A program made the translations under genes and the position numbers. The notes below the pieces were generated by a model. The model was given only the letters and a program-made list of their open reading frames with translations. It was not told the DNA's origin and did no database searches. Shown here piece after piece: positions 15,441 to 29,926 of a stretch of DNA of 40,016 bases (positions within the stretch are counted from its first letter, which is position 1; each line of letters begins with the position of its first letter). The stretch comes from Armatimonadota bacterium (GTDB lineage: Bacteria > Armatimonadota > JAAZEB01). The stretch covers positions 1 to 40,016 of the forward strand of contig JACQGM010000334.1 of assembly GCA_016199585.1 (NCBI GenBank), given 5' to 3'.

Positions 15441-15450
15441 GACGTGCATT

Positions 15451-15615
15451 CGTAAGAGTTCAGGATGTATGATTACGGCACACCGCTTACGGGCGCAGAC
15501 GGAGCAGCGCCCCTACGAATAGGGGCTGCGATCCGTTGGACCACCACACGTAGGGGCCGTCCTCTGTGCCGGCCCGCTCCCTGCAAATCGTACTCACACA
15601 TCCTGAGCTCTTACG
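15451..15615. mobile_element. MITE-like element with 27-bp terminal inverted repeats
   Basis: The ends CGTAAGAGTTCAGGATGTATG... (15451-15477) and CGTACTCACACATCCTGAGC... (15589-15615) are inverted copies matching at 24 of 27 positions. The element is 165 bp and non-coding. It is flanked by TGCATT on both sides (15445-15450 and 15616-15621), and the match extends to ACGTGCATT if the element end is allowed to overlap. This is what a target-site duplication looks like. The interior holds an imperfect palindrome (ACGGAGCAGCGCCCCTA...TAGGGGCTGC) and a TAGGGGC unit, both related to repeats elsewhere in the window. Confidence 0.75.
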
Positions 15616-15629
15616 TGCATTCTGGGGGC

Positions 15630-15658
15630 TTGACAGTCATATTTATTAGTGGTATCAT
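15630..15658 (+). promoter_or_regulatory. near-consensus sigma70 promoter for the WbdD-like gene
   Basis: TTGACA (15630-15635), 17 nt, TATCAT (15653-15658), in a strikingly AT-rich patch (TTTATTAGTGG, ATAATATAACTTAATATATG). It begins nine bases after the MITE-like element's flanking duplication. Transcription would start near 15665, leaving a 170-nt leader before ATG 15836. Confidence 0.65.
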
Positions 15659-15835: not shown

Positions 15836-17416
15836 ATGATCCGGAAACTCATTCATCCTTCGCTTGTGTCTTCTCGCTACTTCAGGAGGGCTTTCAATCT
15901 CATTCGCAAAGCAAGGGCCATCATCATCGGAAAAGGCAGATCGGTTGTGTCTTTGAAGCAGGCGCAAGCCGACCCTGACGAACAGGCTCAGGACGGAACC
16001 GATGGTATCGCGACCCTGCGGAACGCCTTGTCCGAAGTAGAGTTCTATCAACCGCTCTACAGGCTGGACCAAGCTTTGTTCACTTCCGCGATGCCGCGGC
16101 GCCCTTGCCTGGACCGTGCCGACGCGATCTTGAACGCGTGCGGGGGAAACGTCGCAGGAACCAGGTTCCTGGACGTGGGTTCCTCCCTCGGTTTCTTCTC
16201 GTTCTACCTGGCGGATCGCGGCGCGCAAGTCATGGGATTGGAGAACAACGAGGGGAATCTTCGGGTGGCGCAGCTTGTGAAGTCGCTCGTGGGATTGAAC
16301 CCGGAGTTCATGGCCGGCGCGCTCGACCAGCGTTTTGTTGACCAACTGCCGGATGATCGCTTCGAATGCGCCCTGCTCCTGAGCGTATTGCACCATATTG
16401 TCCACTATCGTGGGATACCGTTCACCCAGGTCCTCTTGAGGAAGCTGCTGCGGAAGATTCCGGTGCTGTTTGTGGAACTGGCCTTGAAGGATGAGAAGGC
16501 GGACGTTTTCTGGAGGCCTGCGCAGCCGGATGACCCATTGGCGTTGTTTGCGCTTTGCGAGAACGCGCAGATAGAGTTGTTGGGGGAGTTCCCCACGCAC
16601 TTGTCGGAAGCGAAGCGCCCGTTTTACAAGATCACCCGCGGGGGTACCTTCTACGTCAACCGGCGTCCTTACAACATCGAGAAGGTGTTTCACCGCGCGT
16701 ATCGCGATTCGCCGATTGGCGCGACGCGGACCTATTACCTGGCTCCCGGGGCGTTCATCAAGGCCTACCGGTTTGCGGAAGACAGCGACTTGGCGCGCTG
16801 CAACCAGGAACAGATCATCCGGGAGATCGCCAACTACACTTCCATCAGGCACAGCGGAGCGCAGCCCCGTTGTCTTCCACAAATGCTGGGCTTTGAGATA
16901 GGCGCCGGCCAAGCGTCCATTGTTCTGACACGCCTGGACGGGGAGTTGTTGTCCGACCGGCTGGGGCACCTCAGCCCGAGGGAACAAGCGCAAGTGCTGC
17001 AAGGCATCATTCGCGGCCTCGCGGAGCTCAGATCCCTCGGTCTGCACCATAATGACCTGCGCTGCTGGAACATCGTCGTGGGCGAAAGAGACGTATACCT
17101 GATTGACCTGGGGTTTGCTTCGGGAGTGCAGCTTGAGGAAACCAAGTCGGCCTTGTTGTGGCTCATGGCTGAGATGGCGCGGGCAAGGGTTCTAACCTAC
17201 GAGTACCCACGGCGCGGCGTGCCTCTGGCGGAAGCCGCCCAATACGGCCCGGTTTTCGAGGAGATTGCGGAGTGGCTCTTGCGCTCGCCCGACCCCGTTG
17301 ATCTGGACGCCTTGGACCACGAGATAGCGAGTAAGGTCAGGGTGCGCAGGCGGAACTCCTTCCGCCATGTGCCTTCTCCGTCGCTACGCGGCCATCTTCA
17401 CGGGAAATCACACTGA
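15836..17416 (+). CDS. WbdD-like methyltransferase-kinase fusion
   Basis: The start is ATG 15836 with GAGG 7 nt upstream; the track uses the preceding TTG. The 526-residue protein has an N-terminal Rossmann methyltransferase: LDVGSSLGFF with D113 is motif I and GLENN the acidic motif II. It is followed from about residue 275 by a protein-kinase-like domain. HHNDLRCWNIV holds catalytic D407 and N412, and IDLGFA holds the metal-binding D424 (DLG in place of DFG). This order and spacing recall WbdD, which caps O-antigen chains with methyl and phosphate groups and so sets chain length. No glycosyltransferases or ABC exporter are nearby. T-rich codons such as TTG and TTT are more frequent than in neighbours, and a MITE-like element sits upstream, suggesting transfer. 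The fusion is well supported; the O-antigen role is inferred. Confidence 0.75.
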   Translation: MIRKLIHPSLVSSRYFRRAFNLIRKARAIIIGKGRSVVSLKQAQADPDEQAQDGTDGIATLRNALSEVEFYQPLYRLDQALFTSAMPRRPCLDRADAILNACGGNVAGTRFLDVGSSLGFFSFYLADRGAQVMGLENNEGNLRVAQLVKSLVGLNPEFMAGALDQRFVDQLPDDRFECALLLSVLHHIVHYRGIPFTQVLLRKLLRKIPVLFVELALKDEKADVFWRPAQPDDPLALFALCENAQIELLGEFPTHLSEAKRPFYKITRGGTFYVNRRPYNIEKVFHRAYRDSPIGATRTYYLAPGAFIKAYRFAEDSDLARCNQEQIIREIANYTSIRHSGAQPRCLPQMLGFEIGAGQASIVLTRLDGELLSDRLGHLSPREQAQVLQGIIRGLAELRSLGLHHNDLRCWNIVVGERDVYLIDLGFASGVQLEETKSALLWLMAEMARARVLTYEYPRRGVPLAEAAQYGPVFEEIAEWLLRSPDPVDLDALDHEIASKVRVRRRNSFRHVPSPSLRGHLHGKSH

Positions 17417-28828: not shown

Positions 28829-29926
28829 ATGCCCAACGTTTTCGGCAGAGAGTTCACCCGGGAGGAGCTGGAGCAACGCACCGGACGCATGGACCAGGTC
28901 TGCGGCGTCCGAGCCGCCGTGCTCACCGACGGGCGCGCCGCCGGGGTTCGCGTCGCCGACGTCTGGACCGGCAGCGGCCTGGAGTTCACCGTCCTCCTCG
29001 ACCGCGCGATGGACATTGGCGCGGCGCGCTGGCAAGGGAAGTCCCTCTGCTGGCGCTCGTCGGTCGGCGATGTCCACCCGGCTTACTTCGAGCCGGATGG
29101 CATCGGCTGGCTGCGCAGCTTCGGCGGCGACCTGATCACCACCTGCGGGCTCACCCAGGCAGGGGCGGCGGGTGTGGACGAGGGCCGGGCGCTCGGGCTG
29201 CACGGCCGCATCTCGAACCTGCCGGCGGAGAACGTCCACCTGGATGCGGCGTGGGATGATGACGGCCACTACGTCGTCTGGGCCGCGGGGAGGGTGCGCC
29301 AGGCGAGTGTCTTCGGCGAGAACGTGGTCCTCACCCGGCGGGTGTTCACCCAACTCGGGGAGAACCGCGTCTGGATCCACGACTCGGTGCGCAACGAAGG
29401 CTACGAGCGCGCCGAGCACATGCTGCTCTATCACGTCAACCTCGGCTTCCCGGTGGTGGACGACGGCACCGTCCTCGTCGCGCCCAGCCGGGCGGTGACT
29501 CCCCGCGACGCCGAGGCCGAGGAGGGAAAGGAGGCCTACGCCGAGTTTCGCGGGCCGCGCCGGGGGTATCGGGAGAAGGTCTACTACCACGAGATGCGCC
29601 CGGAGAGCGACGGACTGGTGCCGGTGGCGCTCGTGAATCGCCATGCGAACGCGGGCGCCGGTTTTGGCGTCTATCTGTTATACGGGCATCGAGAGCTGCC
29701 GCACTTCGTCGAATGGAAGATGCTGGGGCAGGGAACCTACGTGGTGGGTCTGGAGCCCGCAAACTGCCTGGTGGAGGGTCGGGCGAAGGAACGCGCCGAG
29801 GGCAGGCTGCAGTTTCTGGAGCCGGGGGAACAAAGGAATTACCGGCTTGAGATCGGCGTGCTGCCCTCACTGCTGGAGATCGCCGCCTTCGAGGAGCGCG
29901 TGGGAGCGATAGCGCGTAAGGAGTGA
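28829..29926 (+). CDS. aldose-1-epimerase-like protein, DUF4432 family
   Basis: The 365-residue protein is a galactose-mutarotase-like beta-sandwich. Typical blocks are TVLLDRAMDIGAARWQGKSLCW, GGDLITTCGLT, LHGRISNLPAENV, HMLLYHVNLGFPVVDDG, and EWKMLGQGTYVVGLEPANC near the end. DUF4432 proteins bind sugars and are thought to be epimerases or mutarotases, but no reaction is settled. There is no signal peptide, so it is cytoplasmic. It stands alone behind its own promoter; the SRPBCC gene follows 73 nt later. Confidence 0.87.
   Translation: MPNVFGREFTREELEQRTGRMDQVCGVRAAVLTDGRAAGVRVADVWTGSGLEFTVLLDRAMDIGAARWQGKSLCWRSSVGDVHPAYFEPDGIGWLRSFGGDLITTCGLTQAGAAGVDEGRALGLHGRISNLPAENVHLDAAWDDDGHYVVWAAGRVRQASVFGENVVLTRRVFTQLGENRVWIHDSVRNEGYERAEHMLLYHVNLGFPVVDDGTVLVAPSRAVTPRDAEAEEGKEAYAEFRGPRRGYREKVYYHEMRPESDGLVPVALVNRHANAGAGFGVYLLYGHRELPHFVEWKMLGQGTYVVGLEPANCLVEGRAKERAEGRLQFLEPGEQRNYRLEIGVLPSLLEIAAFEERVGAIARKE

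What the first reader, a model, noticed from the sequence alone, without database searches (positions are those of the whole stretch)
15836..17416. WbdD-like methyltransferase-kinase in an isolated, apparently transferred locus
The methyltransferase and kinase domain order and motifs (D113; D407, N412, D424) match enzymes that cap O-antigen chains. Here it stands alone, with no glycosyltransferases, and in a less GC-biased style than neighbours. It could be a new capping system or act on another surface polymer.
Basis: partly seen in the sequence, partly recalled or inferred. Interest (0 to 1): 0.65.

Follow-up and report, generated by a model that had tools for sequence, protein, structure and literature searches.

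The report
Lone WbdD-type glycan-capping enzyme, ruler missing
A bacterium outside the known hosts of this enzyme family carries a lone, probably horizontally acquired enzyme that looks able to phosphorylate and then methylate the end of a sugar chain, like E. coli's O-antigen 'stop' enzyme WbdD, but without the long coiled-coil tail that WbdD uses to measure chain length.

Summary
Window 15836-17416 (+) encodes a 526-aa protein whose only strong solved relatives are the WbdD structures (phmmer 6e-36 over methyltransferase plus kinase; Foldseek 6.5e-30 against 5e-9 for the next protein). Key residues are kept: methyltransferase Y71, H186, H187, R261; kinase E330, D407, N412, D424. Composition is foreign: GC3 0.74 against 0.89±0.03 in 31 host genes. 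No relative occurs in 290 other genomes of its phylum.

It is not a canonical WbdD. It ends 102 residues after the DxG Asp, against 286-358 in six WbdDs from O-antigen clusters, so the helix bundle, coiled-coil ruler and C-terminal anchor are absent. A basic amphipathic N-terminal helix could anchor it instead.

It stands alone on its contig, but another contig of the genome carries a manno-heptose / Wzm-Wzt / glycosyltransferase cluster whose Wzt has a weak Wzt_C domain.

Best reading: a horizontally acquired, ruler-less WbdD-type sugar kinase / phosphate methyltransferase capping a lipid-linked glycan. The chemistry is supported by homology; the substrate is inferred. A second short orphan lies in an alphaproteobacterial MAG (L013).

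The parts
15836..17416 (+). WbdD-type methyltransferase-kinase gene (526 aa)
15860..15928 (+). N-terminal basic amphipathic helix (residues 9-31), possible membrane anchor; absent from most WbdDs at this end
   Evidence: predicted helix 14-31; hydrophobic moment 0.68 and net charge +6, highest in the protein; WbdD C-terminal helix gives 0.77 and +6
16013..16630 (+). SAM-dependent methyltransferase domain (residues 60-265) with WbdD active-site residues Y71, H186, H187, R261 and pocket R89, C91, R94, H255
   Evidence: roles of the equivalents Y16, H132, H133, R203 from PMC3482155
16646..17185 (+). protein-kinase-like domain (about residues 271-450) with E330, D407, W411, N412, D424
17186..17413 (+). 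short C-terminal helical tail (residues 451-526), low-confidence model; stands where WbdD has its helix bundle and coiled coil
15630..15658 (+). sigma-70-like promoter TTGACA-17-TATCAT (11 of 12, TG before the second hexamer), about 178 nt upstream of the ATG
   Evidence: 1 found, 0.4±0.6 in shuffles; a consensus match only
15452..15614 (.). MITE-like element with 27-nt terminal inverted repeats and flanking GTGCATTC duplications (15444-15451, 15615-15622); separates the gene from the divergent DegT gene
   Evidence: sequence; 18 copies of the terminal repeat in the genome against 0 in the control

Best explanation
A horizontally acquired, stand-alone, ruler-less member of the WbdD superfamily. 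Proposed mechanism: (1) the N-terminal amphipathic helix holds the protein at the inner face of the cytoplasmic membrane (inferred). [quoted passage not shown] substrate guessed). (3) The methyltransferase domain (Y71, H186, H187, R261) methylates that phosphate with SAM, leaving a methyl-phosphate cap that blocks further extension (inferred from WbdD). Lacking helix aV, the coiled coil and the polymerase-recruiting C-terminus, it cannot measure chain length as WbdD does. It resembles the laboratory truncation WbdD459, which is monomeric, less active and no longer prefers the disaccharide acceptor. So it should act as a plain end-capper of short or loosely selected acceptors. A candidate recipient is the manno-heptose/Wzm-Wzt glycan made from contig C54 of the same genome.
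For: Both domains match WbdD over residues 90-427 and Foldseek ranks all five WbdD entries first. Every published MTase catalytic residue and the kinase metal/catalytic residues are kept (roles from PMC3482155). The tail after the DxG Asp is 102 residues, against 286-358 in six WbdDs of O-antigen clusters and 152 in the orphan L013. The N-terminal helix is the most amphipathic stretch. Foreign composition, no relative in 290 phylum mates, and 1 of 399 sampled genomes of the alphaproteobacterial MAG's phylum (that one being the known L013 genome) argue for transfer. LpxC is present in 20 of 21 genomes of the group, so the lineage makes LPS. The same genome has HddA-like, HddC-GmhB, Wzm, Wzt with a weak Wzt_C match (20.7 bits) and several GTs.
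Against: No glycan gene cluster lies on the contig. Comparable exporters in relatives (L042, L043) lack a WbdD-like gene, so they do not need one. WbdD without its C-terminal bundle is much less active (PMC3482155), so a naturally bundle-less form may be weak. The catalytic Tyr (Y230) cannot be placed with certainty: the MAFFT alignment puts R287 there, the phmmer alignment the nearby Tyr of 'RAY'. Identity is only 26-34%, the branch is very long, and the model has mean pLDDT 66.6. No activity data exist.
Confidence: 0.55

Rival explanations
1. A true chain terminator of the genome's own O-antigen-like polymer (manno-heptose cluster on contig C54): it caps the chain and the cap is read by the Wzt C-terminal domain to license export, with chain length set by some other ruler or not at all.
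For: C54 encodes GDP-manno-heptose-type synthesis, Wzm, Wzt with a divergent C-terminal Wzt_C domain and GTs, but no recognisable terminator. Heptose has the manno configuration that the WbdD kinase prefers (inference).
Against: The genes lie on different contigs. The enzyme is foreign in codon usage while the C54 genes are native. Homologous exporters in G033 and G035 have no WbdD nearby.
Confidence: 0.2
2. It modifies something other than an exported polysaccharide, for example a glycoprotein, flagellar or S-layer glycan, or a small glycolipid, adding methyl phosphate as decoration.
For: Not in a polysaccharide cluster. The other short orphan form (L013, 566 aa) lies beside flagellar FlgE/FlgD genes. 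Loss of the ruler fits decoration better than length control.
Against: No protein-glycosylation or flagellar genes were recognised near the window gene. L013 shares only about 31% identity, and its neighbourhood may be coincidence.
Confidence: 0.2
3. A degenerate or non-functional transferred WbdD: a former O-antigen gene that lost its tail and is drifting.
For: Foreign composition, lone position, missing C-terminal bundle, N406 where most WbdDs have D350, possible loss of Y230, very long branch.
Against: 526 intact codons with the other catalytic residues kept, codon-position bias typical of coding DNA (GC1/2/3 0.62/0.42/0.74) and a promoter-like site. Drift would not keep H186-H187, R261, D407, N412 and D424 together.
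Confidence: 0.12
4. A mis-binned contig or contaminant, not this organism's gene.
For: Genome 80% complete with 3.4% contamination; foreign composition of the gene; no relative in the phylum.
Against: Only this gene is odd; the flanking genes share the composition of other contigs. The MITE 222 bp upstream of the start codon belongs to a family spread over about 16 contigs of the genome. The adjacent DegT gene has a 67% relative in the phylum.
Confidence: 0.03

Closest known systems
WbdD of E. coli O9a / K. pneumoniae O3 (PDB 4AZS, 4AZW, 4UW0)
   Same: Domain order; MTase active site Y16/H132/H133/R203 and phosphate pocket R31/C33/R36/H197; kinase E274, D351, W355, N356, D369
   Different: 28-31% identity. 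No aV trimer helix, coiled-coil ruler, WbdA-recruiting region or C-terminal membrane helix. Extra basic N-terminal helix. Not in a wzm-wzt-wbdA cluster
Orphan short WbdD-like protein in an Alphaproteobacteria MAG (L013: 7809-9509, JARLJC010000108.1)
   Same: MTase-kinase without long coiled coil, possible N-terminal extension, no O-antigen genes within 8 kb
   Different: 41% identical to WbdD but 31.5% to the window protein; 152 residues after the DxG Asp; lies beside flagellar hook genes
Klebsiella O7 terminator ORF6-N (methyltransferase plus AmiN-like kinase; PMC11231755)
   Same: Adds methyl phosphate to a glycan end with an MTase-kinase pair
   Different: Kinase described as unlike WbdD's in sequence and structure; in one polypeptide with a coiled coil and GT2 polymerase modules
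Legionella Lcin_0519 kinase-MTase (PMC9758233)
   Same: Kinase-methyltransferase predicted to decorate LPS
   Different: Its authors describe it as clearly different from and only remotely related to WbdD

Membership tests
WbdD chain terminators | N-terminal SAM MTase followed by a kinase domain, homologous across both | tested here: met
WbdD chain terminators | MTase catalytic residues Y16, H132, H133, R203 and phosphate-pocket residues | tested here: met
   Y71, H186, H187, R261; R89, C91, R94, H255 kept; N34/Q35/D195 differ, as in other WbdDs
WbdD chain terminators | Kinase metal and catalytic residues E274, D351, N356, D369 | tested here: met
   E330, D407, N412, D424
WbdD chain terminators | Kinase acceptor residues Y230 and R270 | tested here: inconclusive
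   MAFFT puts R287 and C322 there; phmmer aligns a nearby Tyr. Four of eight other WbdDs have His at 230
WbdD chain terminators | Helix-bundle aV and coiled-coil molecular ruler after the kinase | tested here: not met
   only 102 residues after the DxG Asp against 286-358
WbdD chain terminators | C-terminal amphipathic membrane helix and polymerase (WbdA) recruitment region | tested here: not met
   absent at the C-terminus; a comparable helix is at the N-terminus
WbdD chain terminators | Gene within a manB/manC-wzm-wzt-wbdD-wbdA cluster | tested here: not met
   none in the 40-kb contig; at least wzt adjacent in nine of the ten loci compared (all but L013) and clusters in the five plasmid loci opened
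WbdD chain terminators | Methyl-phosphate transfer to the non-reducing end of polymannose | not testable with these tools
   needs enzyme assay
Bud32 / RIO / other protein kinases | Curated family score | tested here: not met
   Bud32 32.7 bits against cut-off 125; Pkinase 26.7 against 31.7; canonical WbdD also hits these weakly
Klebsiella O7-type MTase-kinase terminators | AmiN-like kinase, coiled coil and GT2 modules | not tested
   sequence not compared here; architecture from PMC11231755 differs

The most novel reading that the evidence does not exclude
A new, deep-branching, ruler-less class of WbdD enzymes exists outside polysaccharide operons, anchored at the N-terminus. Members (window gene, perhaps L013) cap or decorate short lipid-linked or protein-linked glycans with methyl phosphate rather than controlling O-antigen length, and may cap manno-heptose chains.
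Probability: 0.3. Interest if true: 0.5.

Novelty: new variant of a known kind. Interest (0 to 1): 0.38.

Why it matters
WbdD is the model for how bacteria stop a growing surface polysaccharide at a defined length; ruler and catalysis are thought to work as one molecule. A natural MTase-kinase without ruler or polymerase-binding tail, in an unrelated LPS-making phylum, would separate capping from measuring. It would also test whether the methyl-phosphate cap has uses beyond O antigens.

Tried and rejected
Phage or virus origin: no relative in 50,697 phage records or in IMG/VR with two different queries. Plasmid-borne stand-alone WbdD: the nine plasmid hits looked like a lead, but the five I opened lie in O9-type clusters. 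Operon with the DegT aminotransferase: rejected, since it is divergent, host-like, separated by a MITE, and its 67% relative in G004 has no WbdD nearby. Empty-site comparison: attempted with the AXE and DegT neighbours, but synteny is not kept in the nearest relatives. 'Genome lacks a Wzt with sugar-binding domain': overturned by a direct scan of the C54 Wzt tail (Wzt_C 20.7 bits, below the 30.4 cut-off, E 4.5e-4). Tree placement: the window protein sits on too long a branch to be placed.

Full report
OBSERVATION. The ORF at 15836-17416 (+) is open for 526 codons from ATG. Pfam sees a class-I methyltransferase (residues 113-189) and a protein-kinase-like domain (321-437). phmmer against PDB chains gives WbdD first, E 6e-36, one stretch over both domains; the next protein is at 4e-3. 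The MT part (60-265) and the rest (266-526) each hit WbdDs alone (about 1e-29 and 1e-14), whereas shuffled copies stay above E 0.1. An AlphaFold2 model built with nine fetched relatives (mean pLDDT 66.6, best in 91-280 and 297-430) has a Rossmann-like domain and a bilobal kinase. Foldseek ranks the five WbdD entries first (6.5e-30 to 2.8e-27), then falls to 5e-9. The model rests on a WbdD alignment, so this supports rather than independently proves the fold.

ACTIVE SITES. In the WbdD structure paper (PMC3482155), MTase activity needs Y16, H132, H133 and R203 and uses a pocket with R31, C33, R36 and H197. The window protein has Y71, H186, H187, R261 and R89, C91, R94, H255. Kinase residues E274, D351, W355, N356, D369 correspond to E330, D407, W411, N412, D424 (ATG numbering). 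D350, whose alanine mutant lost only about 10% of activity in vitro but shifted chain length, is N406 here and Asn in one Hydrogenophaga WbdD. Y230, essential in O9a, cannot be placed with certainty (R287 by MAFFT, a nearby Tyr by phmmer), and four of eight other WbdDs have His there.

WHAT IS MISSING. WbdD continues after the kinase into a trimerising helix, a coiled-coil ruler, and a C-terminal region with a membrane helix and a site for the polymerase (PMC3482155; PMC11231755). The window protein stops 102 residues after the DxG Asp; six WbdDs from O-antigen clusters have 286-358 residues there, and the short L013 protein 152. It is therefore close to the laboratory truncation WbdD459, which was monomeric, much less active, and had lost its preference for the disaccharide acceptor. 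At the other end it has about 55 extra residues with a helix that is the most amphipathic segment of the protein (moment 0.68, charge +6), similar to the C-terminal helix of WbdD (0.77, +6). A switch of the anchor from C- to N-terminus is my inference.

CONTEXT. The window is the whole contig C287 (40,016 bp). Neighbours are catabolic or housekeeping genes: M28 peptidase, URO-D proteins, DegT aminotransferase, esterase-like hydrolase, M55 peptidase, GH95, DUF4432, PheS, PheT, and an Eco57I-type methylase. None forms a glycan export cluster. The gene is compositionally foreign (GC3 0.74 against 0.888±0.033; codon distance 0.457 against at most 0.286 for 31 other genes). Upstream lie a MITE-like element (15452-15614) whose terminal repeat occurs 18 times in the genome and never in the reversed control, and a strong promoter-like site. 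The MITE ties the locus to this genome and argues against mis-binning.

DISTRIBUTION. No relative in 100 near genomes, in 290 others of the phylum (overlapping set), in phages or IMG/VR. One scan of 84,980 genomes with a WbdD-based profile gave 11 loci, all Pseudomonadota. That scan used two short patterns drawn from the alignment, so it would miss divergent forms. Among 399 genomes of the alphaproteobacterial MAG's phylum, only that MAG matched. Nine of the ten loci I compared with the O9 cluster carry neighbouring O-antigen genes (wzt at least); the exception is L013, which lies beside FlgD/FlgE. In L017 the kinase part is in one frame with a WbdA-like part.

PARTNERS IN THE SAME GENOME. The lineage makes lipid A: LpxC in 20 of 21 genomes, absent only in this 80%-complete one. 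Using O9 Wzm as query, two ABC permeases appear in the genome. Contig C54 (12.5 kb) has an epimerase, an HddC-GmhB fusion, an HddA-like kinase, Wzm, Wzt, several GTs and a hexapeptide transferase. Its Wzt is 45% identical to O9 Wzt over the ATPase and has a C-terminal domain with a weak Wzt_C match (20.7 bits, E 4.5e-4, below cut-off). In O9a-type systems the Wzt C-domain reads the terminal cap (my knowledge of the field, not tested here). So a manno-heptose glycan is a plausible acceptor. Against a tight link: the cluster is native in codon usage, and comparable exporters in G033 and G035 have no WbdD-like gene near them.

CONCLUSION. By sequence, fold and active-site residues this belongs to the WbdD superfamily and probably does the same two-step chemistry. 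By architecture and context it is not a WbdD chain-length regulator. I call it a new variant of a known kind: an isolated, horizontally acquired, ruler-less WbdD-type enzyme. Shown: homology, conserved residues, missing tail, foreign composition, isolation. Inferred: activity, membrane anchoring, acceptor. Unknown: the polymer.

Noticed in passing
window 15444-15622: MITE-like element (163 bp, 27-nt inverted ends, 8-bp duplication GTGCATTC); 18 terminal-repeat matches on about 16 contigs of the genome, several at contig ends, where they may break the assembly.
   Followed up: partly
L013: 7809-9509: Second orphan, short WbdD-like methyltransferase-kinase in an Alphaproteobacteria MAG, beside flagellar hook genes FlgE/FlgD.
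   Followed up: partly
L017: 1484-6550: Kinase part of a WbdD-like protein and a WbdA-like glycosyltransferase in one 1688-aa frame, suggesting a terminator-polymerase fusion; a run of N interrupts the MTase part.
   Followed up: no
L002, L003, L005, L006: O9-type O-antigen clusters (manC, wzt and often manB, wzm, wbdD, wbdA) on plasmids of Enterobacter, Apirhabdus and Cronobacter, some next to IS5 elements.
   Followed up: partly
L022: 344-12475: Manno-heptose/Wzm-Wzt/glycosyltransferase cluster in the same genome, with a Wzt C-terminal domain below the Pfam cut-off.
   Followed up: yes
window 28881-28969: ARAGORN reports a tRNA with a two-base anticodon inside the DUF4432 gene; probably spurious.
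   Followed up: no
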